The notes under the pieces were generated by a model that saw nothing but the letters and a program-made list of their open reading frames with translations, had not been told where the DNA came from and made no database searches. From positions 1 to 36,845 of the IMG/VR virus record IMGVR_UViG_3300048549_001710: 36,845 nt of DNA; one strand, given 5' to 3'. The number at the start of each line of letters is the position of its first letter. Within the stretch, counting starts at the first letter, position 1. Position numbers and translations under genes: made by a program. Positions 3,258-36,485 of the stretch are shown here, piece after piece. Origin of the DNA: a virus.

Positions 3258-3482
3258 TTATTCCTCCTCTTCACCCTCTCCACCTTTTCCGGACATTGCT
3301 CCACCAAACATCATCATAGCTTTAGCGAATGCCGGATGAAGTGGTGGGATTTCATACTCCCTTGAAGTAGATGTTTTCTTCACCTTCGAGATTGGTTTCT
3401 TTGATCTCTTCAATTGGTTTTCCGTAGGCATCTTGGACGAACCTCGTCCGTCTTGTTTTTTCTTGTTTAGGTAATCGCTCAT
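3258..3482 (-). CDS. Overlapping small protein after the giant gene (up to 74 aa)
   Basis: This frame ends at 3258 and overlaps the last 130 bases of the giant gene in the +1 frame. It encodes a Lys-rich first half (MSDYLNKKKQDGRGSSK) and a Met/Gly tail ending GGEGEEEE. The start is uncertain: ATG at 3482 gives 74 residues and ATG at 3431 gives 57, and neither has a convincing Shine-Dalgarno sequence. An alternative is that the frame is reached by frameshifting from the giant gene. The reading frame itself is supported because its end provides the ribosome-binding site of the 36-aa gene. Confidence 0.45.
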   Translation of the reverse strand: MSDYLNKKKQDGRGSSKMPTENQLKRSKKPISKVKKTSTSREYEIPPLHPAFAKAMMMFGGAMSGKGGEGEEEE

Positions 3483-6400
3483 TTTTTTCAGTATATTTTG
3501 GTCTGCCCATAAAGTCATCAACAAAAGCATCTCTGTCTGCTTCAGTCGCAGGGAACTTTCCGGCAACAGCTAACTCCCCTAAAATATCAAAACTAGAATG
3601 ACCAACAGCTTCCTTCTTGATCATGTTCCATGTAACCCAATGCATAGCAAATGCGGAATCAATCCAAGCGTAATCTTTTCTTTTCTTCCCTACCTGTTTC
3701 GCGAGATCAGAGAACATATATTCTAATGTCCGATACATGGCATGTTCAACAGGATCATCCAATTGCGACCCGATAGTTTTATAATAACCTGATCTATCTT
3801 CCGGTACACCCTTGGCATCCACTCGATATGGACTGACCCCAAATTTCACATATTCTTTTTTCTGCTTCTCGGCAAATTCCTTAGCAGTTTTTGATGCCTC
3901 CGGATCAGCAATAATTTCATTTACTTTTTGCAGTCTGTTTTGAACTGCACCTTGTATTTGGTGTTCCCATACATTCACGAATTGCCATCTGTCCATGATG
4001 ACAACATTTGGGTCTGCCATTAAAGCGATAACGAATGATGTAACCTTGTCTTTCACTCCGGCTCCAAGGAAACCTGTTGACCACATCTTTTCGCGGATTT
4101 GCTGACCATTTAAAGACTTGTCATTAAAGATGCCTGTCAGTTCTTTCCATCTGCCATTCCATTTAACAAGCATGTCATGAATTGCCTGAATGTTTTGCTT
4201 GGCATTATTCCCTGCGGATACCGGACTCTTTTGATCGTTAAACATATTGGCAACGATGTCAGTAAAAGTATCCGGTTGATCCTCGATATTTCTTCGTTCA
4301 GCTTCACTTGCTAGAGCGACCCTTTCTTTCTTGGGTAACTTTTTAATTCTTGAATCGATGTAAGCTTTTTTCTGTTTTCCAATTGCGGTAAGTCTGTCTT
4401 TGATTTTATCGACTCTTTTCTTTTCTTTTTTCTTCAGCTTATTAACTATGCGAGTCCGTAATTTATTTAACTTTGATTTTGGCAACTCACCTAATGAAAC
4501 TGCTTCCTGATAAAGTGGGCTTGATTCAGCTAAGGATCGATAGTCAATTTTAGTTGGCTCGATTTCAGATTCAAGTTCTCCAATTTTTACATCAAAATCT
4601 TTGTACCCTTTTTGCGATCTCCATCCGGCTCCATATTTTTCATCGGCAACCGCACTCATATCATAAAATGTACCTTTTTCCATTTCATAATTTCCATCAA
4701 TAGATTGGAAGATGGCATTCCACATGGGCTTATAATTTGTTGTTCTAAGCCACCCTGCTTCCTGATTGTAGGGATCAAGCATCCGGCTCAGTAAACCCCA
4801 TATAAAACTCTGTGCGATCATCTCCGGAGGCTTGACAATGTCATGCAGTTCTTTCGCACTCTCATACCCCTCTTTAGCTAATTCTATAAACTCAGGATTA
4901 GTTGCCATTGTGCTGTCTAACCATCCGATCAATTGGTCAATGTCATTTACATAGTCTAGGAATTTTGTAGGAGGTGCAGGGATGTCAAAACTACTTACAG
5001 AATTTAATCTAAGTTGATGAATCTTTTCCCAATTTTCAGGAGTCGCATAACGCTTTCCTAATTTTTTCATCATGGCATCCGCGAGTGCATTGTCTGAAAA
5101 ATATTGATCCCAATGAGACTGAGTCCAATTCTTGGAATTTTTTGTCAGTTGAATTTCTGTTTTGTCATTATCATAACTTAACATTGGGAAATTCATTTTC
5201 GTATCTTTACTCATTACCTCGCTCGGAACACTAGGCATGAATAGCAACGAATTGAGCATAGATTTCCTTACCCCATCTGATATCTGTCCACGATTAGCTT
5301 CAATGCTCTCGTGGCGAATTGCTCCCTTGTTTCTCCATCGCGCATCTGCAAAGGCAAGAGCATCTTTAGGTGCTTGTTTCCTGACTTCTTCTGTGGTGAA
5401 GGGAAAGTTTTCAGGTACTGAGAGTTCCCCATCATCTTTCCTTGTTTTAATTTCTGTTTCTGTGTCGATATCATAGATTGAATCTTGGTCTCCCCAAATT
5501 GCCATTCGCACAGCATCAAGGTAGTTGTTAACAGGGAATGCAACATCGAGCATAAAACCTCGATCATCACTTAACCATCCCCCTAGGTGCGCACCATCTT
5601 TCTTAAATCGATGGGCATGAGTTTTTATATAATTCCATAATGCAGTCCGGTTCATTTCCTGATTTGGAATAATAAATTCTGTTTCTTTTTCAGGTGCTAC
5701 CACATATCCGGTTTTAGCATGAATAAGATTGCTCTGATCAATTGTAAATCCATAAGGATTCTTTCTCATATCCTCGATTAGATTATCAAAATGTTGTGCG
5801 GTATCATCAGTCAACATGGTGTATGGCATCGCGAGAATTGTACCCTCGTTGGCGAATGTAAATTCCTGTCTTTTAAGATCACCTTCATCACCCCAAACTT
5901 TTGCCTGTGATTTCGCATCGACAACAGCATAAGTTCTGCCTCCGTACTCCTCATGCATTTTAAATAAATCAAATCCATGTTTCTTATAAAGGTATGTATT
6001 AATTGAATTATCAGTAGACTTGGATGGGTCACTAATATTTGTTTCTATGCTTGATGGGCTTTCAAACATATTCCAATTAAGACCTTTTTCATGATACCCC
6101 TGCATTACGATTTCTTCCATTGCTTTTGGTGGGAGATTTGCCAAAACATCATCCTCACCTCTACGACCTGCTATAAATACTTTGTTTAGATTTTCCTTAA
6201 AGCTTTGATCCATCACACTTTCCATGAATCGACCCATTGGTGAATCTAATCGACCTGCTCCATCATTAAGAATTTTATCACCTTCAAATAATTTTGTAAG
6301 GTATGAAACTAGTGTTGGTATTTTTGTTTTTCTATATCTTGAACTAGGAGAATAAGTTCTCCATTGCCACACTACAGAGTCAATAACATCCGCAATATTT

Positions 6401-9400
6401 ACTCCATTAAAAGAAGTTCCAATATATTGTTTCCGATCCTCAAGTGGCATCTCTCTCCACCACTCACTAATTAAATTTTGATGCATGGGATTATCTGTAT
6501 CCCACATTTTCTTACCTTTAATAACAAAAGTGGACTCATTATTTTGAGGAGACATATTAGAACCTCTCCCAACCCTTTCTTGCCTGTCGGTAAAAAACGC
6601 TTGGATCGAACCATACCGATGCGTTTGGTCTCCTATATCATCTCTAAAATTTCCGCGATGGGTCATCGTATCAGTATGCCCATGAATTAAAACTATTGGC
6701 TCAGGTGAATCTTCTTTAGTTAACAATCCACCCTGATGCCACTCTTTGAAATATTTACTATTGTAACCATTCTCTTGAAATTCTTTATCGGCATCCATAA
6801 GAAGATCAATGTCTGCCCTACTCATTTTGGACACATCCATTTCAAGTCTGCCATCTTTCACTCCGGCACTCCATGAAGGTTCCGGCATAAAGAATAACCC
6901 CTGACCTAAATTTCTTCTCTGATAGGTCTCATTACTAGTCTTTAATTTATGGTCATTAGCAAACATATCATTTCCTTCAGTCGCACGAAGAATCGTGTTT
7001 GTAATTATTGCTCTTTTGAAACTTGTTTCACCAACACCTAACCTCAATGCACCATAAGTTTTTAAATATTTTATCAATCCAAAATCGTTTTTATCTGCTG
7101 TTCTCCGCATTAAAGGATGGATCAAATGCATGGTCTGTGGGTTTTTATACCACTCTTCTGTTTCTGCCCTAGTGGCATCACCTTTAGGAAAAACTAAATA
7201 CTCTTTTCCAATATCATTACCCTGCCCTTTACGATGATCTATTGCTAGATAATTTCCGGTATCAAAATCATACCTAAATGCATCAAGTAAATTTAAATAC
7301 TCCAAGTCAGTATAGGTAGAATCTTGATCATTTAAACCCTCAAGTTCTTGAGCTAAATCAGATGTTATATCATCCATATGAACCTCGGCAATTCTAGCTC
7401 GAACCTCATCTCTTTCCTTTAAGGCGAATGCTGTAATAAGCCGGACATAGGAATCAGAATTAGTGCTATCCACCAAAACCTCATCTGTGTAGTCACTTTG
7501 ATTAAATTTATATTCCCCTCTTTTACTCTCATGAAAACTGATGTGGTCTTTATTTTTACTTTTTAAAAGTTGCGATAATCTTGCACTTGCTGTCCTTAGA
7601 TCATTTACGCTAGTTAAATCTAAATGCACAATTGGAATGCCAACCTGATCTGCAAAATCATACAATGCCTGATAGATTTTTTTTCCTGAAAAAACACTTC
7701 CAAATTGACCTGTTCCCTCTTTACCTAAATCAGTTGTATCGAGCCGGATTACAAATGGGAAATCTTGATCTTTTCTTTCATTGATAATGTTTATTTTAAA
7801 TGAAGCTCCACCCTTCCAACCATCTTTGATTTTAGCTTCAGAATTGCTGTCAGTAATTTTATAAGTGATCCCATAATCATCAATAATTTGATCCTCAGTC
7901 ACCAACTGATTTCCATCAATATCTGAAACCTGACTTAAATTAAATCCTGAATCCAATTCTACTTTGATACCATCATAATTAGAAAGCACTTGCTCCAACT
8001 CGTTCCCTAAAGCTTCATAACTATCTTTCTTCCAATCAATCCTTGCTTGCTCATTATACTCAGCATCAATAGGAGGTTCCATGCCAAGTCCGAAATCAAT
8101 TTTCTGAGTGGCGAATATATCTTGATTTCCTTTAGTTGCACCAATTAAAAATGATCCAATTCTATCGACCTGATTTTGATTATCTTCATGTGGATTTAAA
8201 GCCCACTCGATCAATGATTCGTTTAAGCTTTCACCATCAATATTAAAATCAGAATCAGGGTCTCTAAGGATGGTTTCAATTTCTTTATCGGTATACCTGT
8301 CAAACGAAGATGGTAATGCGATAAACCCATTTGTTTTATTTGAAGTTACATATTTCTTTTTGCCTTTTGAGGGGATAGTTGAATTTTCACTTCCTTGACC
8401 GGACAGCATCGGCATGTAATTAAATTTTGCATTTTTGTAATCATACGCATACCCACTCCTGTTTTCAGTATTGAGTCCGGCTAATGCAGAAACATCATAA
8501 CTCTTAAAAGCGTTTTTCATTTTATTACGCTCAGGGTCTGAGAACCATTCGTTATTATTTGGATCAACAATTCGCTCACCTGATTCCTTCATGCCCATTG
8601 CCATAACATAAAGTTCATTCTCTCCTTTACCCAATGGATTAATCTGTCCTTCATCTGTGCTTTCGCTCAAAACAGATTGTGCATGTTCAGCAAAATTCCT
8701 TTTAAAATCATCCACACTTATTCCATCCGGAAGTAATCCGGCATGTGCCATTATTTCTATGTTATTTTCAACAATGTCGGCATCGTATGCCATTACCTTT
8801 AAGTTAGGATAAATAGTTCTACCCATGCGAGTGTAAGGCTTTTTAGGGCTTATTTGCCAAGCGTAAGGAGTAACGCTTCTTTCAAAGAATGGATTGTAAT
8901 CTGATCGATTTTTCCATGACGCTGAACGATATCCAAATTTCAGCATTTGTCTTTTGTCAATTGCCGATTGGATCATATCAATAACAGAGTTTACAGCATT
9001 ATTATATTTGCCTGACATTCCAAAAACTTGACGAGTCTTCCAATGTAAATTTTTCCCTTCGTTACCTTTTCCAATTCCGGTGAACTTCCCTGCTTCCCCT
9101 TCGTTGCTCCGAAGTGCATCTGCTTCCAAAAGTTGATTGTATTGAGTTGAGTCTTTTACATGGAAATGAGACGCAAGTGCCATATTAACACCAATGCCCC
9201 CAAACAACTGAGTGAATCTTTCATTTGCAGTTTGTCCATCTTCAGGAGCGTGTTTTCTTCCGGTCTCAATATCTTCTGCTCGTTGAGCTAAATGCTTTTG
9301 TTTTTCTTTTGTGTAATTATTAAAAACTTTCTTAACCTTATCGTTTGATAACATTGCTTCCGAAATTATAGACTTGGCATGTTTTTCAGTCTTGGGGTCA

Positions 9401-11373
9401 AGGACTCCCATTTTAGTTAATGCAGTCTTCATCGCGTCAAACAGGGAATGACGAATGCCCTTGTTCATATTAGCAAACGCATTTGGATTTTCCTGAGTTG
9501 CTAGGCTCCATTGCTCGGCTCCAATTTCCTCAGATAATAATCCGGCATCACCCTTGCCATTATAATTCACATCAACAAGATTTCCCTTATTGTCCAATTG
9601 TCCGGTAAACCCAAGTTGATGAGCATATTCAGGTATGCTTGGCATGATTGCCATTGCGTAATCCTTGGCGAATTGAAATGCCTCTTTGTTAACTTTAACA
9701 CCTCCTAAATTTTTTCCGTTCTCATCGGTGTAAATAAATTCAACACCATTATCATCTTGGTATTTTTCTAAGATTGCCCTGCGAGTCATCGGTGCTGAAC
9801 CAAGTAATTCCTTCATCGCATGATGACCATGTTCATGAAGAAATTTTTGAGACGCAATTTTAGTTCCTTCTTTTATATATTTTTCATTAATATAAATCGT
9901 TCGAGATTTACCATCGTAGAATGCCGGAGGTACTTTACCTTCTTTTACTTTAGGAACCTTAATGTCCGGTGATCGATTTTTATTTATTGTTTCTCTTGCA
10001 AAATCATCACTCACAAGTTCCATTCTAAAATTACCAAGTCCGGCTAATTCATCGAGTGTAGTAAGTGCGACTTTGGACATATCATCCAAACCTTTTATTG
10101 CTTCAGCAGTTTCTCTATTTCCCTGCTGTTTTTTCTTTGCTATGTAATTATCAACTCCGGTCTGCGAACGCTCAGAAAGTGATCCGTCCGAATTAAATGC
10201 TGAACGAGATTTTCCTGATCCTCTCTGTCCACCAATAGCACCAACAGGACTACCCATTCCCATGCCCATTCCGGTAGCATATCCAACTTCCTCTGCGGAC
10301 TTACCCTTTAGTCCCTCCATTGCTATTTGCATTGCCCCTGCTCCCAATCCTGCAACAAAAGAATCAAATGCAATATCATACATTTGAGTTCCCTTCATAT
10401 TATACAAAGCTGTTGCTGTTTTTCTCGTAGCTTTGCTCACCTTGTCGCTTGTTGCAAGACGATGTAAAAATCTAGAATGCGAAGAAGGTTGAGAAAATAT
10501 ACTTGCGATTTCTCCAAGTTCCCTGCCTGTCTTTCCGGCAATTTTCGTTAAGACTTCTCCGGCATAAGAAAAAGAAATTGCAGATGCGATTGGGGCTACA
10601 ATGGGAGTAGTAATTCCACCTAGAGTTCCGGCAATTGATGCACCCTGAAGAACAGAATATCCTCCACCAATTTTCGCATTGTCTGAAAGTTTTTTTGGAA
10701 GACCTAAAACATCACTTGTTTTTAACAATCCATCACCTACACCTTTTAATGCGAATGCAGATGCTTTAGCAGATTCTTTCAAGCCTTTCCTGACCATTTT
10801 TGATCCACCCTTCAACGCGATTGCTGATGGTAATAAATTTGTGGCATCTGTAAAGTCTGCCAAAAATGAAACCTTATTTTGGAATTGATTGGTAGTCGCT
10901 TTTATAAAAGCTTCCCTAGCATCATTGAAATAATTCATTTCAAACTTATGCCGACTCCATGCCCTCTCTGCTCTTTGCTCTAAACTAAGCTCAGAATTAA
11001 AATGATCTTTAATATTACCTACCATTACTTTGTAGGAATTATAGGTATCTCTAGCACCTAGTTCGGCACTTCGGAAAAAGCTTCCCCATGCGTCTGCCAT
11101 ATCTCCATCCTTGTCACCCAAACCTAGCATAGACATAGTCATGGACTTACCATTCCAAGCTTGTGGAATTTCCTCAGTCACATAATCAGATAACCCTTCA
11201 GGAACAGCTTTGGCAAATTCCCACATTGCTTCACCATAACCACGATTTTCTCTCCTCATCCAATCCTGAATGAAGTATTCCTTTTCCCTATCCTCCGGAG
11301 TTATTGTCTCAGTTTTATAGTCAATCTTATCTGACTCTTTAAAACTCTCTTCAAGTTTTGAGTAATCAATCAT
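3352..11373 (-). CDS. Giant polyvalent-type internal virion (ejection) protein, 2673 aa
   Basis: One uninterrupted frame of 2673 codons, over a fifth of the window. Residues about 238-275 and 330-380 are Gly/Ala-rich hydrophobic segments, as in ejected proteins that insert in membranes. HEHGH at 513-517 fits a zinc-metallopeptidase HExxH site. Around 1555-1660, IHGHTDTM followed by HRYGSIQAFFTDRQERVG and a later FVIKGKKMWDTDN resemble ADP-ribosyltransferase domains of phage polyvalent proteins. Residues about 1885-1990 (GYVVAPEKETEFIIP, later GGWLSDDRGFMLDVAF) resemble a domain common in large phage proteins. Residues 2300-2365 form a very basic helix, and 2420-2470 contain GAGVKDKVTSFVIALM with MDRW. 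The start is an ATGA overlap with the 828-aa gene. The ejection role is inferred from size, neighbours and composition. Confidence 0.8.
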   Translation of the reverse strand: MIDYSKLEESFKESDKIDYKTETITPEDREKEYFIQDWMRRENRGYGEAMWEFAKAVPEGLSDYVTEEIPQAWNGKSMTMSMLGLGDKDGDMADAWGSFFRSAELGARDTYNSYKVMVGNIKDHFNSELSLEQRAERAWSRHKFEMNYFNDAREAFIKATTNQFQNKVSFLADFTDATNLLPSAIALKGGSKMVRKGLKESAKASAFALKGVGDGLLKTSDVLGLPKKLSDNAKIGGGYSVLQGASIAGTLGGITTPIVAPIASAISFSYAGEVLTKIAGKTGRELGEIASIFSQPSSHSRFLHRLATSDKVSKATRKTATALYNMKGTQMYDIAFDSFVAGLGAGAMQIAMEGLKGKSAEEVGYATGMGMGMGSPVGAIGGQRGSGKSRSAFNSDGSLSERSQTGVDNYIAKKKQQGNRETAEAIKGLDDMSKVALTTLDELAGLGNFRMELVSDDFARETINKNRSPDIKVPKVKEGKVPPAFYDGKSRTIYINEKYIKEGTKIASQKFLHEHGHHAMKELLGSAPMTRRAILEKYQDDNGVEFIYTDENGKNLGGVKVNKEAFQFAKDYAMAIMPSIPEYAHQLGFTGQLDNKGNLVDVNYNGKGDAGLLSEEIGAEQWSLATQENPNAFANMNKGIRHSLFDAMKTALTKMGVLDPKTEKHAKSIISEAMLSNDKVKKVFNNYTKEKQKHLAQRAEDIETGRKHAPEDGQTANERFTQLFGGIGVNMALASHFHVKDSTQYNQLLEADALRSNEGEAGKFTGIGKGNEGKNLHWKTRQVFGMSGKYNNAVNSVIDMIQSAIDKRQMLKFGYRSASWKNRSDYNPFFERSVTPYAWQISPKKPYTRMGRTIYPNLKVMAYDADIVENNIEIMAHAGLLPDGISVDDFKRNFAEHAQSVLSESTDEGQINPLGKGENELYVMAMGMKESGERIVDPNNNEWFSDPERNKMKNAFKSYDVSALAGLNTENRSGYAYDYKNAKFNYMPMLSGQGSENSTIPSKGKKKYVTSNKTNGFIALPSSFDRYTDKEIETILRDPDSDFNIDGESLNESLIEWALNPHEDNQNQVDRIGSFLIGATKGNQDIFATQKIDFGLGMEPPIDAEYNEQARIDWKKDSYEALGNELEQVLSNYDGIKVELDSGFNLSQVSDIDGNQLVTEDQIIDDYGITYKITDSNSEAKIKDGWKGGASFKINIINERKDQDFPFVIRLDTTDLGKEGTGQFGSVFSGKKIYQALYDFADQVGIPIVHLDLTSVNDLRTASARLSQLLKSKNKDHISFHESKRGEYKFNQSDYTDEVLVDSTNSDSYVRLITAFALKERDEVRARIAEVHMDDITSDLAQELEGLNDQDSTYTDLEYLNLLDAFRYDFDTGNYLAIDHRKGQGNDIGKEYLVFPKGDATRAETEEWYKNPQTMHLIHPLMRRTADKNDFGLIKYLKTYGALRLGVGETSFKRAIITNTILRATEGNDMFANDHKLKTSNETYQRRNLGQGLFFMPEPSWSAGVKDGRLEMDVSKMSRADIDLLMDADKEFQENGYNSKYFKEWHQGGLLTKEDSPEPIVLIHGHTDTMTHRGNFRDDIGDQTHRYGSIQAFFTDRQERVGRGSNMSPQNNESTFVIKGKKMWDTDNPMHQNLISEWWREMPLEDRKQYIGTSFNGVNIADVIDSVVWQWRTYSPSSRYRKTKIPTLVSYLTKLFEGDKILNDGAGRLDSPMGRFMESVMDQSFKENLNKVFIAGRRGEDDVLANLPPKAMEEIVMQGYHEKGLNWNMFESPSSIETNISDPSKSTDNSINTYLYKKHGFDLFKMHEEYGGRTYAVVDAKSQAKVWGDEGDLKRQEFTFANEGTILAMPYTMLTDDTAQHFDNLIEDMRKNPYGFTIDQSNLIHAKTGYVVAPEKETEFIIPNQEMNRTALWNYIKTHAHRFKKDGAHLGGWLSDDRGFMLDVAFPVNNYLDAVRMAIWGDQDSIYDIDTETEIKTRKDDGELSVPENFPFTTEEVRKQAPKDALAFADARWRNKGAIRHESIEANRGQISDGVRKSMLNSLLFMPSVPSEVMSKDTKMNFPMLSYDNDKTEIQLTKNSKNWTQSHWDQYFSDNALADAMMKKLGKRYATPENWEKIHQLRLNSVSSFDIPAPPTKFLDYVNDIDQLIGWLDSTMATNPEFIELAKEGYESAKELHDIVKPPEMIAQSFIWGLLSRMLDPYNQEAGWLRTTNYKPMWNAIFQSIDGNYEMEKGTFYDMSAVADEKYGAGWRSQKGYKDFDVKIGELESEIEPTKIDYRSLAESSPLYQEAVSLGELPKSKLNKLRTRIVNKLKKKEKKRVDKIKDRLTAIGKQKKAYIDSRIKKLPKKERVALASEAERRNIEDQPDTFTDIVANMFNDQKSPVSAGNNAKQNIQAIHDMLVKWNGRWKELTGIFNDKSLNGQQIREKMWSTGFLGAGVKDKVTSFVIALMADPNVVIMDRWQFVNVWEHQIQGAVQNRLQKVNEIIADPEASKTAKEFAEKQKKEYVKFGVSPYRVDAKGVPEDRSGYYKTIGSQLDDPVEHAMYRTLEYMFSDLAKQVGKKRKDYAWIDSAFAMHWVTWNMIKKEAVGHSSFDILGELAVAGKFPATEADRDAFVDDFMGRPKYTEKNERLPKQEKTRRTRFVQDAYGKPIEEIKETNLEGEENIYFKGV

Positions 11374-13856
11374 CTTCCAAAATTATATCGTTTCTCATAT
11401 GAAGACCCTTCGTTTGCTGTCTCAAAAAAGTTATTTTTTTCGTAGTTCAGTTTAGCGACTAATGCCTTATTTAGTTCTAGTTCCTTACCTGATAATGTTG
11501 ATTGCTTTGACTTTAATTCATTAATCTTCGCATCATATTCTTCAGCACGATAGTTACCTAAATCATTTAGCATATCAATCCCTCCAATTGCCCAACCAAT
11601 ACCACCTGAAACCAAACCTCCCATAAAAGATATTCCAATCTTTTTTAGTACTGATTTACCAAGTGCCTTGGATGCTTTTTCCGCTACTTGTTGATCAAGT
11701 TTTTTCGTAACAGCTTTCTTTAATTTAGCTTCACCTTTTTTTCCGAACCCAAATTTCTTTGTGTCGTTTGGATCAATACCAACAAGCTTTGCCTGTTTTG
11801 CTAATTCCTTTGGATTGTCCAATTTGTCAGATAGCATCTTATTATATTTTTGCTTAGATGTCATACCTCTATCCATATTATCGAAAATAGCTTTGTCTTT
11901 CCCTTTTATATTTTCGCGAATAGTTCGATTTAAGTTAAGTGCATTTTCTGCTTTATTTGAAAAATATCCGGTTGCCGATGCCCCTGCAGAAAACCCTGCT
12001 CCACCTCCAATTAGATTCCGTCCGTTCTCACTTTGGTCTGCTCTATTGGATACATTCTTTTTAATGTCGTTTAAAATATTTTTAACCTGTTCGTTGTAAT
12101 TCTTAGTTGCTGTTGTCCCCAACTCTTTTTCATTGCGAGGTTTTTCACTATCGGTAAAGCCTTGCATTATTTCTCCGGCACTTGCCTCAACAGCTTCAAA
12201 TTCATTAAGTGTTAATTCTCCATTTTCCCACAACTGATTCCCTGCAATACCAAATGCACTATTTACTCTCTGAGATTTCTCAGGAGTGTCTATTACAATT
12301 TTTGATAAAAATTCTTCCCTAGACATTCCTTTCTTAATCGCATTTCGAGCATGGGCAATATCGGTCTCCATTGGAACAGCTTGGTTTTTATATAAGCTTT
12401 CAATTCCACCCTGCATAAACTCAGAAATTCCACCTAGCTGTGTATCAATTTCACCAAGGGTTAATCCACCATATTGATCCTGAACTCCCTTGAAAATTCT
12501 TGGCACATATTTATTTGTGTCAGACATAAACTTACCTTGTAATGCTCCCATTACATCCTTCATGAAAAGTAAATCATTTGCGGTAATCTCGCCTCCTCCA
12601 TATTGAACAATCTCCCCTGCTTCATAAGGTTTTGAAGTAGCAGGGTTTATTAATTTATGAAATTGTCCACCTTCTCCTATGTCTTTTGATGTTACTTTAT
12701 ATTCACTACCAATTTTTTTGTCATACCATCTATTTACATTTTCGTAAAAAGTTTGCGACCCCTGAATCCGATTAACATCTTGATTTGATAAAACCCCTGC
12801 TCCCTGTGCCAATTTAGCTAACTTGATTAGGGCAACTGATGCACTCACAGGGTTTCCTACGAAATACTCTTTTAGACCTTCAGGGTCATTAGGGTTTTTC
12901 ATCACATAAGCTAAAGCATTATTTATCAATAAGTCAGTTTGTCGAAGGTCACCCATGCTGTCCATGACTTGCTTAAATTCACCAAATCCAACTAACTCAG
13001 CTATTTCATTTGCGGTCTTCCGAACTCCTCCGTCAGGCACAACCAATGATTCTAATTGCTTGGTCAATGTATCAATTTGTTCCTGTGGTAAATTTAAATT
13101 TGTAATGACAGAATCAACGGCATTTTGCATTTCACTCTGCGACAAAAAGTTTAATTCTTCAAGCTGAGTGCCATCACCTTCCTTTTTCATCATCCCCTGT
13201 TTAATGGTAGGTAAAAGAGCAGAGTTATATCTTCCTAACCCCATTGCCTTGTTAACCTCCTGAACAGACTGAGTGGCTAAAGAAACATCACCTCCCTGCT
13301 CCTTAACATATTTTAAATATTCCTGTGATCTTGTTACCGGAGTAACATCTTTATTTTTAGGATCACTACTCCATGCTAAGTAAGCATTCTTTGATTTAGA
13401 TAAATTTGTTTGAAGTTCTAATTGCTCGTTTTGATTTTGAATTAAATTTGTCTGCTGTTGTATTTGATTTTTTCGAGCTTCATTAACTTCAAACTCTTGT
13501 TTGAATTTCATACCTTCTCGGTATTTTTTCATTGCTTCTTGCACCCCTCCGGCATCACTTAAAAATTTCTGCCCTTCTTTATCTCGGTACTTCTTGTCTT
13601 GTTGAATTTGTTGAATTTCAAATGGAGACATATTTCTTTCTAGAGCTAAATCCCTAAATTCTTCTGTCTGCATAAAGTCATCTGCTAGTGCTTCTGCTTC
13701 TTTCTTTTCAAAATAAGCACTACCTATGTTTTTTACAATTCCTCCAATTATTGCACCATTTTGTGCCATTGCTCTAGCTTGAGCTTCAGCACCTCTTTGA
13801 AGACCTGAATAGTCTCCGCGATTAACTTGTATGTTTGAAAAATATGGTGATGCCAT
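11370..13856 (-). CDS. Internal virion (ejection) protein, 828 aa
   Basis: An 828-residue, largely helical protein. The N-terminus is Ala/Gln-rich (AEAQARAMAQNGAIIGGIV). A Gln/Asn-rich likely coiled coil follows at about 115-165 (KNQIQQQTNLIQNQNEQLEL). A Gly-rich hydrophobic segment lies near 742-765 (GISFMGGLVSGGIGWAIGG) and resembles a membrane-inserting stretch. Such features are usual for the internal core or ejection proteins of podoviruses, stored in the capsid and released into the envelope before DNA. It sits between the 644-aa and the 2673-aa proteins, with an ATGA overlap to the latter, so the three are probably made together. No enzymatic motif is seen. Confidence 0.7.
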   Translation of the reverse strand: MASPYFSNIQVNRGDYSGLQRGAEAQARAMAQNGAIIGGIVKNIGSAYFEKKEAEALADDFMQTEEFRDLALERNMSPFEIQQIQQDKKYRDKEGQKFLSDAGGVQEAMKKYREGMKFKQEFEVNEARKNQIQQQTNLIQNQNEQLELQTNLSKSKNAYLAWSSDPKNKDVTPVTRSQEYLKYVKEQGGDVSLATQSVQEVNKAMGLGRYNSALLPTIKQGMMKKEGDGTQLEELNFLSQSEMQNAVDSVITNLNLPQEQIDTLTKQLESLVVPDGGVRKTANEIAELVGFGEFKQVMDSMGDLRQTDLLINNALAYVMKNPNDPEGLKEYFVGNPVSASVALIKLAKLAQGAGVLSNQDVNRIQGSQTFYENVNRWYDKKIGSEYKVTSKDIGEGGQFHKLINPATSKPYEAGEIVQYGGGEITANDLLFMKDVMGALQGKFMSDTNKYVPRIFKGVQDQYGGLTLGEIDTQLGGISEFMQGGIESLYKNQAVPMETDIAHARNAIKKGMSREEFLSKIVIDTPEKSQRVNSAFGIAGNQLWENGELTLNEFEAVEASAGEIMQGFTDSEKPRNEKELGTTATKNYNEQVKNILNDIKKNVSNRADQSENGRNLIGGGAGFSAGASATGYFSNKAENALNLNRTIRENIKGKDKAIFDNMDRGMTSKQKYNKMLSDKLDNPKELAKQAKLVGIDPNDTKKFGFGKKGEAKLKKAVTKKLDQQVAEKASKALGKSVLKKIGISFMGGLVSGGIGWAIGGIDMLNDLGNYRAEEYDAKINELKSKQSTLSGKELELNKALVAKLNYEKNNFFETANEGSSYEKRYNFGR

Positions 13857-13858
13857 GA

Positions 13859-15793
13859 CTATAAATATTTTTTGGTTAATCCTCCGGTGACCCCTCCAAC
13901 AGCACCTCCAACAATACTACCCCACATTGAAGACTCCCCTGCTTTTCGAGTTGCCTCGGCTCCGGCATATGAAGAATTATAACTATTTAATTCAGCTTGT
14001 TGATTCGCTTCAAATTGCGCCCCTTGTGCCGGATTGTAAAGTTGTGGACTTGCGCCAACTCCGGCATATGCATTTCCATAAACAGCTTGCCCTGCTTGGT
14101 TTTGAACTCCGGAGGGTCTGCCTAAAATCGCTTGAAATGGGTCTGCCGAAGTTGCCTGTTCGATACCAACTCGTTGAGTTGCATATCCCCGATCCATCTG
14201 TAAACCCTGTTGATATAATTGATCATTAATTTGTTTTTGAGATATCGCTCTATCCATCAAGCCCATTTGGGTATTCATGACTTGTCCGGCAAAGTTCTGC
14301 CTTTGAGTTTCTCTTGCTCTTGATGCTTGTTCACCAAAATTTAATTCTGCTAAAACACCTGAGAAATCCCTGCCTCGACCTCTTGCGGATGATGCCATTC
14401 TAGCACCTTGTTGCGCTGTCCTTAACTCTCTTGCGGTAAGTCTGCCTCCGGCTTGCATTCCCCGTTGAGCCTGATCAAGCATTTGTTGATTTAAACCCTT
14501 AGCGGACGCTTGTCCTTGTCTTTGTGTTCCGGATTGTATTTGTGATGGATTACCCTTTTCTGCTATAAATGCGTTTTTTCGTTTTTCCTCGATAAGTTCT
14601 AGTCTTTTTTCTCTTGATGATTCTTGAAATTTTTTCTTGTCGTTGGCATAGGCATAAAGCTTTCCTTCCCACTCATTGTCTGCCCAATCGTCTTTCATAT
14701 TCTGCCAACTTTCAGACTTATCCCAATCTAATGTATTCTGCTGATATGAATCCCCAAACATTTGTTTTTGCTCATCATAAGACTTTTCAAAACTTTCTAG
14801 ATCAGTAACTGATCTGTCATAATTGTTTTGCAGTTGACCTTGTCGCATTGTCGGTTGTGGATTATCCACTAAACCAAAAATGTCATTTGATTGATTACGA
14901 GGAATTGCAGACATTTCCCCAAGTCTTTCAGTTTCATCAAGGGCATCTTGAATGCCTCCCTGCTGACGATAAAGATCAGTCGCTTGCTGTCCATATTCAC
15001 CAACCAATCCCAATTCATTGGCAATTGTGCTTCTTTGTTCCCGTTGCCTTAAATCTTGTTCAAATTTTTGAGCGCCAAGAAATTCTCCGTTTTCATCAAA
15101 CCCTGCTTGTCTAGTAGTTTTAGTTCCATCTTCATTGAAATATTCAGTCTGTTGCCGACCACCTACTAAATCTGTGATTCCACCACTATAAACATTCTTC
15201 CCTGCCGATTCTATTCCAACATACTCGCGAACGATTCCGGATTCAGGATCGGCAACTTTATTTGTGTTCCCTCGTTCGTAAAAAGGCGCTCCTGCACCGG
15301 ATTCCGGAGCAACAACATCTTGACCTGTGTTAGCCTTGTGTTCTGCTGTCCACATATTCCATCGACCTACGATATTTTTTTCACTATCGTCTCCATATAC
15401 AAAACCTTGGTTGTGGGCATTTTCCCACCATGTTCCGTCTGCATCCTGACCTTTTAATATTTTATTATACAAACCAAGAGATGGATCAACCTCCCGTGCT
15501 TTTGCTAAAATCGCATCCTTTTGATTGTCAAATTTAACATACTTACTTCGATCAAAATTCTTATCGTCCGTAACAACATACCCTTCTTGGTCAACTTGTT
15601 TTCGCTCACCTACTAAAGCGTTTTTTGCAATTTTTTGTTCGAGTCGTGCGTAAGCAGGTCTCCCTGAATTTTCATCAGACTCTGCTCGATAAAGAGCACT
15701 TGCCATGTCAACTTGTGCTTCTAAGGCTTCACGCATTGACTCTCCATAATTAATAGGAGTGGGTGGGTTATAAGTGGTTTTTGAACTAGACAT
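13859..15793 (-). CDS. Internal virion (ejection) protein, 644 aa
   Basis: A 644-residue protein very rich in Gln, Ala, Gly and Arg. The first 200 residues are charged; the middle third is helical with repeated QG and RQ content (for example QMLDQAQRGMQAGG); the last 25 residues hold a Gly-rich hydrophobic stretch (SIVGGAVGGVTGGL). This composition matches capsid-internal ejection proteins of P22- and SU10-like podoviruses, where such hydrophobic ends are thought to enter membranes. Its start overlaps the upstream 115-aa gene by eight bases and its stop lies two bases before the 828-aa gene. Confidence 0.65.
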   Translation of the reverse strand: MSSSKTTYNPPTPINYGESMREALEAQVDMASALYRAESDENSGRPAYARLEQKIAKNALVGERKQVDQEGYVVTDDKNFDRSKYVKFDNQKDAILAKAREVDPSLGLYNKILKGQDADGTWWENAHNQGFVYGDDSEKNIVGRWNMWTAEHKANTGQDVVAPESGAGAPFYERGNTNKVADPESGIVREYVGIESAGKNVYSGGITDLVGGRQQTEYFNEDGTKTTRQAGFDENGEFLGAQKFEQDLRQREQRSTIANELGLVGEYGQQATDLYRQQGGIQDALDETERLGEMSAIPRNQSNDIFGLVDNPQPTMRQGQLQNNYDRSVTDLESFEKSYDEQKQMFGDSYQQNTLDWDKSESWQNMKDDWADNEWEGKLYAYANDKKKFQESSREKRLELIEEKRKNAFIAEKGNPSQIQSGTQRQGQASAKGLNQQMLDQAQRGMQAGGRLTARELRTAQQGARMASSARGRGRDFSGVLAELNFGEQASRARETQRQNFAGQVMNTQMGLMDRAISQKQINDQLYQQGLQMDRGYATQRVGIEQATSADPFQAILGRPSGVQNQAGQAVYGNAYAGVGASPQLYNPAQGAQFEANQQAELNSYNSSYAGAEATRKAGESSMWGSIVGGAVGGVTGGLTKKYL

Positions 15794-24546: not shown

Positions 24547-26136
24547 TTAGTAAATTATTTGAAATGTTCCTCCACTTTGGGAAACGATTTGATACTTACC
24601 TACCGGAAGTGTCGTTCCTCCGGATAAAGTAATTGGTACTTTCGATACAAAGAATCTTCCAACTAAAGGCACTCCATTATTAACCCAATTTCCGATGGTA
24701 ATAATTTTATTTCTACCATTAGCAACTAAGCCAAGACCTAAGTCAATTTTAGCATCTGATCGATTGTATGAATCCCAAAATGTGCCTTTAGGGTAAGAAG
24801 GATGCCCTTGAGCAAACCCTTGAGTGTAAGTAACCAAACTACCTGTTGCGGTATTTATAAAAGTTGATGTCCATTCAATATCATCTCCGGCACTTAGCCC
24901 ATCAAGTCGAGTTATTTGAAAATATGTATTATTGGGAAATCTACCACTACCAAGCGGATGATTATAACCATTTGGAAATATTATATATTGCCCCAATTTT
25001 GGAGTCCCTCCAACTTGATAAATCCCTGCTGTTTTTACTATATTTCTACCATTTGCTGTAGTAGAAAAACTTGTACCTAAATTTGTACGACTAAATTTAG
25101 CTGAATTTATTCCGCGAGCAGAGGCTCCAAGAGAAAACGATAATTCCGGTAATCCCTCTTTGATTGCTCCGATGCGATCTGTTGTTTGATCTTGGGTATA
25201 TGGTTGTGTAGCATTTGTCCTACGATATGCATTACCTCTTATCACATAAGGTTGTCCTCGATCTTGCTGTTGATCTAATTTATCGACCTCTCTTACCAAT
25301 GCGTCTAGCACTTTGATCTCCCATAGCTCAGATTTCTCGTGCTGTCCGTCTCCTGTTAACCACGATTTGTACGCATGTAATTTTATTGCCGGATATAAAA
25401 ATTTAGCAACAGGGGATGTGCTTGAGGATGTTGTGTAGGTAGGTGCATCGATTCGATACTTAATCCAAACTTCATTTACAACCGCATCTAAAGATTCTAC
25501 ATAAATACCCTCAGTTCCCTCCCTGAAATTTAGTGGAGTTGCTTTTGTATATCGAGGGTCAGTTTTATGAACAGAGATTATTGTCTCAATTGCATTTTTT
25601 CCGGTCTGCTCATAAGCAATATATCTTTCAAATCGCTCATTAAGTTCTTGAAAATATGTTGTATTGTTGGGATCAATATTATCATATTCAAAATTAGCTA
25701 AATTAATTCCGGATGATGTGTAAGGGACTTGAATACAAAGGTAATTCTTATCATTAAATCTTACCTTAGCCCCTATATCATAAAGACCACTTTCTTCCCA
25801 CTCAGGATCATTATTGTAGTCTCCTATTTCATGCCAAAAAGCAACACTTTCATCAGGCTTATATCCTGTTGATATTTTCCAACAACGATAGTATTTATCT
25901 TTATAAAATACTTCTTCATCCACAGCATATGTTTTGCTGTTGTCGTACTCTTCCCGAAAGTACCTTTTTTCAGTTAATGTAAATTCTGCCCAAGGGTAAT
26001 AATCATAGCAAAATCTTACCGCATCATTGATATACTCGGTAAGAAGAATCTTTTCATGTGCAAGCAAATTAGCAGGGTCTATCCCTGCTGTTGATGCTAT
26101 ACCATTAAGGCAACTTTCAAATGTGACTGATCGCAC
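24547..26136 (-). CDS. Head-tail adaptor with inserted CBM-like modules and repeat tail (529 aa)
   Basis: The start is GTG at 26136; no ATG fits the frame. Residues 1-60 and about 170-295 fit a podovirus head-tail adaptor (tail tubular A-like): helical N-terminus with AVRFCYDYYPWAEF and a later VNEVWIKYRIDAPTY followed by a C-terminal helix (EIKVLDALVREVDKLDQQQD). Between these lie two units resembling carbohydrate-binding modules of the CBM5/12 type: YDNSKTYAVDEEVFYKDKYY with W101, and residues about 112-165 (YDIGAKVRFNDKNYLCIQVP). Residues 331-370 and 463-481 carry a repeat shared with the 675-aa neighbour. At 529 aa it is well over twice the usual adaptor length. Confidence 0.65.
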   Translation of the reverse strand: MRSVTFESCLNGIASTAGIDPANLLAHEKILLTEYINDAVRFCYDYYPWAEFTLTEKRYFREEYDNSKTYAVDEEVFYKDKYYRCWKISTGYKPDESVAFWHEIGDYNNDPEWEESGLYDIGAKVRFNDKNYLCIQVPYTSSGINLANFEYDNIDPNNTTYFQELNERFERYIAYEQTGKNAIETIISVHKTDPRYTKATPLNFREGTEGIYVESLDAVVNEVWIKYRIDAPTYTTSSSTSPVAKFLYPAIKLHAYKSWLTGDGQHEKSELWEIKVLDALVREVDKLDQQQDRGQPYVIRGNAYRRTNATQPYTQDQTTDRIGAIKEGLPELSFSLGASARGINSAKFSRTNLGTSFSTTANGRNIVKTAGIYQVGGTPKLGQYIIFPNGYNHPLGSGRFPNNTYFQITRLDGLSAGDDIEWTSTFINTATGSLVTYTQGFAQGHPSYPKGTFWDSYNRSDAKIDLGLGLVANGRNKIITIGNWVNNGVPLVGRFFVSKVPITLSGGTTLPVGKYQIVSQSGGTFQIIY

Positions 26137-28662: not shown

Positions 28663-28908
28663 TTACTTGGGGTCAATAAACCTATACCATGTCGAACGAG
28701 TTCGTTGTTTATGCACGGGGTTCCACTCGGAACCTTTAAACATTTCAATCTCTCCGGTTTTTAATCCGTTATTGATAATACGATATGCTCGGTTAGTTCC
28801 AATTTTGGCACTCTCTAAAAAATTCTTAAACTTAAACCAACCTTTTCCATCAGGTAAATTGTCAGGTGTATCTAATAGACCTTGTAATTTCTTCCAATTT
28901 ACCTCCAT
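28663..28908 (-). CDS. Small hypothetical protein, possible DNA-binding (81 aa)
   Basis: An 81-residue basic protein with W, K and R throughout. The segment FLESAKIGTNRAYRIINNGL reads like a short helix-turn-helix, and the C-terminal half (RTRSTWYRFI) could be a wing. No family is firmly recognised. The ATG overlaps the end of the phosphoesterase gene by ten bases. It is the last gene before the hairpin gap. Confidence 0.5.
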   Translation of the reverse strand: MEVNWKKLQGLLDTPDNLPDGKGWFKFKNFLESAKIGTNRAYRIINNGLKTGEIEMFKGSEWNPVHKQRTRSTWYRFIDPK

Positions 28909-29612
28909 AAAAATTTCCCTTCAAATTTTCGTGCAGTATAACATGCCCATGATTTATTGGAAAAATATCCATATGCCCATCCGGTCTCATGTGCCAATCG
29001 ATTTACCTTTGCTCGGTTCCAATCCATTGCTGTTGTTGCTAAACATCCGGCACTCACTCCGGCTCCACCTCCCATTTTTGGAATTGATGCATGTTGGATG
29101 CTGTGAATGTGACCATGAACAACGAGTCCACCTGATTGGCTAAAGGTTTCCGCATGTCTTTTGGTTGCTGTCACCCCATGATAAAATCCATGCACAAAAT
29201 TTATTTTACCAAGAGATAAAATGCCTTTATCCACATCATAGGGATACATCTTACATTTTATGGAACGACATTTTTTCTCAATATCTTTTATGCAAATTTT
29301 TGCAGTATCTCGAATTAATCCAAGCGAATGTTTGTGTGCTGTCTGCCAAAGTCTATCGTCATGGTTGCCAAGTAAAAAATGGTGAGGTTGAAACTTATTT
29401 AAAAATTCCATCCCTGCCCAAACATCTGCTTCCATCGAGGCATTTTTTTCTGCCGGATCAGCATTTTTCATTAGTGGAGAAAAATCAAAAAGGTCTCCAC
29501 CAAAAATTCTTACATCAGGATTAAATTCTTTTGTAAATTTTAAAAGTTGCTCGACCGAATCATGACATTGCTTATCGCCATGCAAGTCGGATGCGTAAAC
29601 AAAAGATTTCAT
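28899..29612 (-). CDS. Calcineurin-like metallophosphoesterase (237 aa)
   Basis: A 237-residue protein with the complete metal-binding set of the calcineurin-like phosphoesterase superfamily: D9-x-H11 in SDLHGD, D40 in FGGDLFD, GNHD at 82-85, H141 in NFVHGFYHG, and GHIH at 167-170. These enzymes hydrolyse phosphomonoesters or phosphodiesters with two metal ions; the substrate here cannot be read from sequence. It sits between the portal and scaffold genes, an unusual place for an enzyme, with an ATGA overlap to the preceding 52-aa gene. Roles in nucleotide second-messenger removal or DNA processing are both possible. Confidence 0.85.
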   Translation of the reverse strand: MKSFVYASDLHGDKQCHDSVEQLLKFTKEFNPDVRIFGGDLFDFSPLMKNADPAEKNASMEADVWAGMEFLNKFQPHHFLLGNHDDRLWQTAHKHSLGLIRDTAKICIKDIEKKCRSIKCKMYPYDVDKGILSLGKINFVHGFYHGVTATKRHAETFSQSGGLVVHGHIHSIQHASIPKMGGGAGVSAGCLATTAMDWNRAKVNRLAHETGWAYGYFSNKSWACYTARKFEGKFLWR

Positions 29613-36002: not shown

Positions 36003-36485
36003 CTAGTTCTTGTTCCAAGGTTTTACCTTTCCCTTAAATTTTCTAAATAATTTCTGAGGTATGAACACACAGCATTGATAATCTGTAATTACATTCATTT
36101 CCGGTCTGTCAGTTCTGCCCCACACCTTAATCCTTCCATGTTCATTGACTTCCCTTACATCCGCAAATGCCTCAGTCCCACATCCAAACGATACCGCCAA
36201 AAAACACTTCTGATTACAAATTGTAGTCTCCCTGACCAATTCATCCCATTTGCTCTTTGCTATAAAATACCATTCGTAATCTCCAAAACCATGCTTGGAA
36301 TGCTTTACCTCGATCCATCCCAACTGCCATTCGTCTTTATCTTCAATTCGTAAATCCAAAATAGCAGTATCCTCAGTATTTTTCATACTCAGTTCATGTT
36401 TTGCCCAACGCTTTTCAATCCTGTCCGCAAATCTTCTTTGCCTGATCTGATCCGCAAGAGTTTGCATTTTCCATTCCTGTCCCAT
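36003..36485 (-). CDS. Possible PD-(D/E)xK-type nuclease-like protein (160 aa)
   Basis: A 160-residue protein. Residues about 42-60 (ILDLRIEDKDEWQLGWIEVK) give Asp, then E-x-K in a beta strand, followed by a helix-like FIAKSKWDELV. This D...ExK spacing is the core of PD-(D/E)xK nucleases such as Holliday-junction resolvases and VRR-NUC proteins. It overlaps the previous gene by TAATG. The assignment rests on a short motif; a non-enzymatic role is possible. Confidence 0.5.
   Translation of the reverse strand: MGQEWKMQTLADQIRQRRFADRIEKRWAKHELSMKNTEDTAILDLRIEDKDEWQLGWIEVKHSKHGFGDYEWYFIAKSKWDELVRETTICNQKCFLAVSFGCGTEAFADVREVNEHGRIKVWGRTDRPEMNVITDYQCCVFIPQKLFRKFKGKVKPWNKN

What the first reader, a model, noticed from the sequence alone, without database searches (positions are those of the whole stretch)
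3352..11373. Giant 2673-aa ejected-type protein with a protease motif and an ADP-ribosyltransferase-like region
One unbroken frame of 2673 codons follows two other internal virion proteins. It combines hydrophobic Gly/Ala segments (about 238-275, 330-380), HEHGH at 513-517, an ADP-ribosyltransferase-like region near 1555-1660, a widespread large-phage-protein domain near 1885-1990 and a basic helix near 2300-2365. Polyvalent phage and plasmid proteins are known to carry enzymes into the cell with DNA; here a protease and a transferase may be delivered before phage genes are expressed.
Basis: partly seen in the sequence, partly recalled or inferred. Interest (0 to 1): 0.8.

Follow-up and report, generated by a model that had tools for sequence, protein, structure and literature searches.

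The report
Giant modular phage protein with protease
A bacterial virus carries a giant 2,673-residue protein with a protein-cutting domain and swappable modules separated by a recurring short motif, which suggests (but does not prove) that it is injected into the host and cuts itself into separate working pieces.

Summary
The 2673-aa ORF is real (minus strand, 3352-11373) and ends a late-gene block behind 644- and 828-aa proteins; that gene order recurs in three related contigs. It is a polyvalent-type phage protein (Iyer 2017) with no usable Pfam, PHROG or PDB sequence match. The zincin call holds up: HExxH is invariant in the full-length relatives, is followed by an invariant third-ligand-type helix (SEEIGAE, E616), and 26 HExxH occur in 33 related giant ORFs against 1.0 expected. 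The ART call for 1555-1660 is not confirmed (low model confidence, no profile support), although relatives do carry canonical ART-PolyVal modules. The 1885-1990 domain is weakly supported. (1) The C-terminal ~550 residues are an undescribed all-helical domain found in 66 uncultivated-phage loci. (2) Modules in this family are bracketed by a short [NR][FY]MP[SAE] motif (38 [FY]MP against 5.6 expected; 2 against 3.2 in other ORFs of the same contigs; 23 against 4.6 in proteins not used to define it), conserved as protein while synonymous codons differ. Best reading: an ejected polyprotein that its own zincin may cut at these sites. The cutting itself is untested.

The parts
3352..11373 (-). Whole ORF, 2673 aa, giant polyvalent-type protein (P0001)
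   Evidence: full-length relatives L001 95%, L002 79%, L003 54% identity
10234..10662 (-). Residues 238-380: Gly/Ala-rich mildly hydrophobic stretch of the N-terminal region (constant end, shared with L030/L037)
   Evidence: read from translation; no KD19 window above 1.4; N-terminal homology E 5e-51 to 1e-57
9454..10086 (-). Residues 430-640: zincin-like metallopeptidase domain
   Evidence: AF2 pLDDT mostly 70-85 over about 409-619, with dips into the 50s
9823..9837 (-). HEHGH (513-517), zinc-binding/catalytic motif; HEFGH in L003, HELGH in L030/L037
   Evidence: lies inside a long helix in the model
9514..9540 (-). LLSEEIGAE (612-620), candidate third zinc ligand E616 (ExxxE/D helix)
   Evidence: E616 invariant in A1 and A7; same-type motif downstream of HExxH in 19 of 26 family ORFs, 2.9 expected
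8419..9216 (-). Residues 720-985: second conserved domain of the constant N-terminal half
   Evidence: hmmsearch E 4e-54 and 4e-53 to L030/L037; A7
8407..8421 (-). Motif site 1, NYMPM (985-989), at the end of the constant N-terminal half
   Evidence: same spot reads NYMP/NFMP/NFLP in L003, L030, L037, L091, L094, L045, L052
6880..6894 (-). Motif site 2, FFMPE (1494-1498); L002 and L003 carry different inserts of about 250 and 200 aa here
6484..6756 (-). Residues 1540-1630: ART-like stretch (H1564, Y1587, D1625 invariant in 4 relatives); fold unconfirmed
5404..5766 (-). Residues 1870-1990: domain with a weak relative in Rhodococcus phage E3 gp68
5230..5244 (-). Motif site 3, LFMPS (2044-2048), just before the C-terminal core
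3484..5184 (-). Residues 2064-2630: C-terminal core (RMLDPYNQEAGW ... KWNGRW ... GAGxKxKV ... DRWQ ... HWxTWNxIKxExVGHSS), all-helical
   Evidence: 66 viral loci, A6/A10, AF2 pLDDT mostly 80-95, no significant Pfam/PDB sequence match
4339..4596 (-). Residues 2260-2345: basic helical insertion in the core, mostly absent from L003 and absent from distant relatives
11370..13856 (-). 828-aa ORF upstream, putative internal virion protein by position (stop overlaps the giant ORF's start)
13859..15793 (-). 644-aa ORF upstream, putative internal virion protein by position
   Evidence: by eye its C-terminus resembles that of the first large protein of phage C75C1

Best explanation
A polyvalent protein of a short-tailed-type (SU10-like capsid) phage, most likely packaged in the virion and ejected with the DNA. 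It has a constant N-terminal half (Gly/Ala-rich region, zincin, second conserved domain), a middle in which effector modules are gained and lost as cassettes, and a constant C-terminal helical core. Its zincin most likely works on the protein itself, cutting at the [FY]MP motif between modules to release them in the virion or the host. Shown by sequence: architecture, zincin signature, module swapping, motif enrichment. Inferred: packaging, ejection, catalysis, and that the motif is the cutting site.
For: Zincin: 26 HExxH in 33 related ORFs against 1.0 expected, third-ligand-type motif downstream in 19 of 26 (2.9 expected). Motif: 38 [FY]MP in 27 non-redundant ORFs, shuffle mean 5.6, maximum 13 of 300; 2 against 3.2 expected in 135 other ORFs of the same loci; 23 against 4.6 (P 7e-10) in 22 ORFs not used to notice the motif, FMP and YMP rank 4 and 6 of all tripeptides after masking core and zincin. 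Modules lie between sites: in L037 the stretch FMP|...|YMP is one complete ART-PolyVal (E 1.1e-15) and the L083 stretch between RFSP sites holds PBECR5 (E 4.9e-29) plus ART-PolyVal; L002/L003 inserts sit at site 2; 9 of 44 insert boundaries carry a site, 2.5 expected. Protein-specific variants: L094 FMPS four times, L073 FLP four times, L083 FSP six times. Codons differ at synonymous positions between sites of one protein.
Against: No cleavage data. Zincin presence and two or more [FY]MP sites are not significantly associated (11/24 with, 1/6 without; Fisher P 0.20); L052 has two sites but HExxE in place of HExxH. Several zincin-bearing members have no [FY]MP site. Foldseek gave no significant fold match for either model in the PDB (jannalysin metallopeptidase only at E 4.4). 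N4 virion RNA polymerase has an MPTase domain yet is packaged unprocessed (PMC5512222).
Confidence: 0.5

Rival explanations
1. The protein is ejected and acts as one intact chain; [FY]MP is a structural or docking linker (for packaging, unfolding through the tail, or binding a partner), and the zincin acts on host proteins or is a vestigial structural part.
For: No significant zincin-site association; N4 vRNAP is packaged intact although it has an MPTase domain (PMC5512222) and its C1 subdomain carries a conserved HExxH (PMC12633501); zincin-bearing members without the motif exist.
Against: Intact zinc-ligand sets are kept across highly diverged members; a linker without a reader needs no fixed FMP letters, let alone protein-specific variants.
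Confidence: 0.35
2. The motif is a by-product of module shuffling: modules are copied with their ends, so the same ends recur without function.
For: Modules are gained and lost at or near these sites; some ends, such as DIRYMP after ART domains, look inherited with the module.
Against: Unrelated domains end in the same motif; peptide is conserved while synonymous codons differ within one protein; other ART-bearing phage proteins end in IRFSR or IYHARG without FMP.
Confidence: 0.15

Closest known systems
Polyvalent proteins (Iyer et al. 2017, PMC5512222)
   Same: Giant multi-domain phage protein near late genes, zincin hub domain, ART/PBECR modules in relatives, proposed ejection and MPTase processing
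   Different: The passages read there describe no inter-module motif ('linker' 0 occurrences); the C-terminal core matches no Pfam or PHROG family searched
N4 virion RNA polymerase gp50 (PMC12633501)
   Same: Giant ejected protein with HExxH subdomain, ejected with two partner proteins
   Different: No RNA polymerase module identified here; zincin in the N-terminal half rather than the C-terminal domain
Phage C75C1 (OQ984151)
   Same: Nearest annotated relative by terminase (31%) and capsid (30%), three large genes in one block
   Different: Its large proteins have no HExxH and no core motif; one stray YMP only
ART-PolyVal PF18760 and MPTase-PolyVal PF18818
   Same: Relatives L037/L083 carry ART-PolyVal above cutoff; L030 zincin hits MPTase-PolyVal weakly (E 0.13)
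   Different: The window's own protein matches neither above cutoff

Membership tests
Polyvalent phage proteins | Several unrelated domains in one very long phage protein | tested here: met
   zincin, second N-terminal domain, 1870-1990 domain, helical core in one 2673-aa frame; relatives add ART-PolyVal and PBECR5
Polyvalent phage proteins | Encoded near virion structural genes | tested here: met
   same strand as terminase, SU10-type portal and major capsid genes
Polyvalent phage proteins | Packaged and ejected with DNA | not testable with these tools
   needs virion proteomics
Zincin metallopeptidases | HExxH in a helix plus a downstream third ligand | tested here: met
Zincin metallopeptidases | Zincin fold | tested here: inconclusive
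   secondary-structure order fits; Foldseek not significant
ART-PolyVal (H-Y-D ADP-ribosyltransferase) | Profile match or ART fold at 1555-1660 | tested here: not met
   no Pfam ART match, hhalign below 1%, model pLDDT below 50 so the fold itself could not be judged
ART-PolyVal (H-Y-D ADP-ribosyltransferase) | Conserved H, Y, D in order | tested here: inconclusive
   H1564, Y1587, D1625 invariant in 4 sequences, but equivalence to the strand 1/2/5 residues (PMC5512222) is not shown

The most novel reading that the evidence does not exclude
A self-processing phage polyprotein: effector modules are kept as interchangeable cassettes between cognate cutting sites read by a co-encoded zincin, with each lineage's protease and site variants co-evolving.
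Probability: 0.35. Interest if true: 0.75.

Novelty: new variant of a known kind. Interest (0 to 1): 0.55.

Why it matters
Iyer et al. proposed that zincins process polyvalent proteins, and the passages of that paper read here name no sites. A recurring motif gives a concrete, testable cut site. The widespread, undescribed helical core marks a family of giant phage proteins in uncultivated phages; four genome-bin hits all lie in Verrucomicrobiota, a hint at hosts.

Tried and rejected
An HhH-GPD glycosylase identity for the core, guessed from GxGxK and DRW, found no support: no Pfam, PDB-sequence or significant PDB-fold hit. BFVD gave two significant matches, neither with an informative name. 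tblastn of the whole protein, the C-terminus and the 828-aa neighbour found no cultured phage. hhalign for the ART region gave nothing usable. A zincin-site association test was not significant.

Full report
Observation. The frame 3352-11373 is open for 2673 codons on the minus strand, last of three large genes (644, 828, 2673 aa); L001-L003 keep the same order. Pfam, PHROGs, PDB and the phage collection gave no usable single-sequence match. Terminase, portal and capsid place the phage with SU10-type capsids.

Family. Three full-length relatives (95, 79, 54%) and L090-L094 (31-42% over the zincin and second domain; L092 and L093 are the contigs of L030 and L037) share the N-terminal half. The C-terminal core reaches 66 viral loci. 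Where the containing frame is long enough to read, it is a giant ORF; some loci hold only fragments.

Zincin. HExxH occurs once in most full-length members, 26 in 33 ORFs against 1.0 expected, with an E-[ILVFM]-x-[AGSY]-[EDY] motif downstream in 19 of 26. The model puts HEHGH in a helix after two strands and E616 in a later helix. Foldseek was not significant. L052 has HExxE.

ART. Not confirmed for this protein. It is confirmed by Pfam in relatives L037 and L083.

Core. Residues 2064-2630 model mostly at pLDDT 80-95, all helical, with 29 invariant positions in 33 sequences, most of them divergent. No PDB fold matched significantly; BFVD returned two significant matches, one an uncharacterised phage protein and one without a name. 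The Foldseek query was the whole 1194-residue model, half of it low confidence, which lowers sensitivity.

Motif. I noticed [FY]MP in the window protein, L001-L003 and L008-L017, so the first test is partly circular. Restricted to 22 ORFs read later, 23 sites stand against 4.6 expected (P 7e-10), with 3 reversed PM[FY]. Across 27 non-redundant ORFs, 38 against 5.6 in shuffles, and 2 against 3.2 in 135 other ORFs of these loci. Neighbours favour N/R before and S/A/E after. Modules sit between sites, insert boundaries are enriched (9 of 44, 2.5 expected; this count used [FY][ML]P and MAFFT gaps that split some inserts), and synonymous codons differ between sites of one protein. The Fisher test linking zincin to sites was not significant (P 0.20). 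The window protein itself has three sites against 0.24 expected (P 0.002).

Mechanism. Self-processing at the motif is the reading that best joins the retained zincin with the motif, but no cleavage was observed, and N4 vRNAP shows that an MPTase-bearing ejected protein can stay intact (PMC5512222).

Structural inputs. Both AlphaFold2 jobs used alignments of window and locus proteins only: A9 with 9 sequences (mean pLDDT 53) and A10 with 33 sequences (mean pLDDT 60). Low depth is the likely reason for the poor middle.

Noticed in passing
window 28899-29612 (-): Calcineurin-like phosphoesterase gene (Pfam Metallophos E 3.8e-8) between the scaffold/capsid and portal genes.
   Followed up: no
window 36003-36485 (-): Putative PD-(D/E)XK endonuclease (Pfam PDDEXK_14 E 5.6e-6) near the end of the window.
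   Followed up: no
window 24547-26136 (-): 529-aa protein with a carbohydrate-binding module match (CBM_5_12 E 7.6e-6) in the structural block.
   Followed up: no
L098-L101: All four genome-bin hits of the core domain lie in Verrucomicrobiota assemblies, a hint at the host phylum.
   Followed up: partly
L002:14432-15175: The L002 insert at site 2 looks by eye like a second ART (GERIYHGSA ... GFLGLGYYG) and matches phrog_4700 weakly (E 2.4e-5).
   Followed up: partly
L083:5400-7460: Stretch between two RFSP sites holding a PBECR5 nuclease (E 4.9e-29) and an ART-PolyVal domain; the motif variant in this protein is FSP, six [FY]SP occurrences against 0.7 expected.
   Followed up: partly
L052, zincin region: Zincin domain with HExxE in place of HExxH while two YMP sites are kept.
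   Followed up: no
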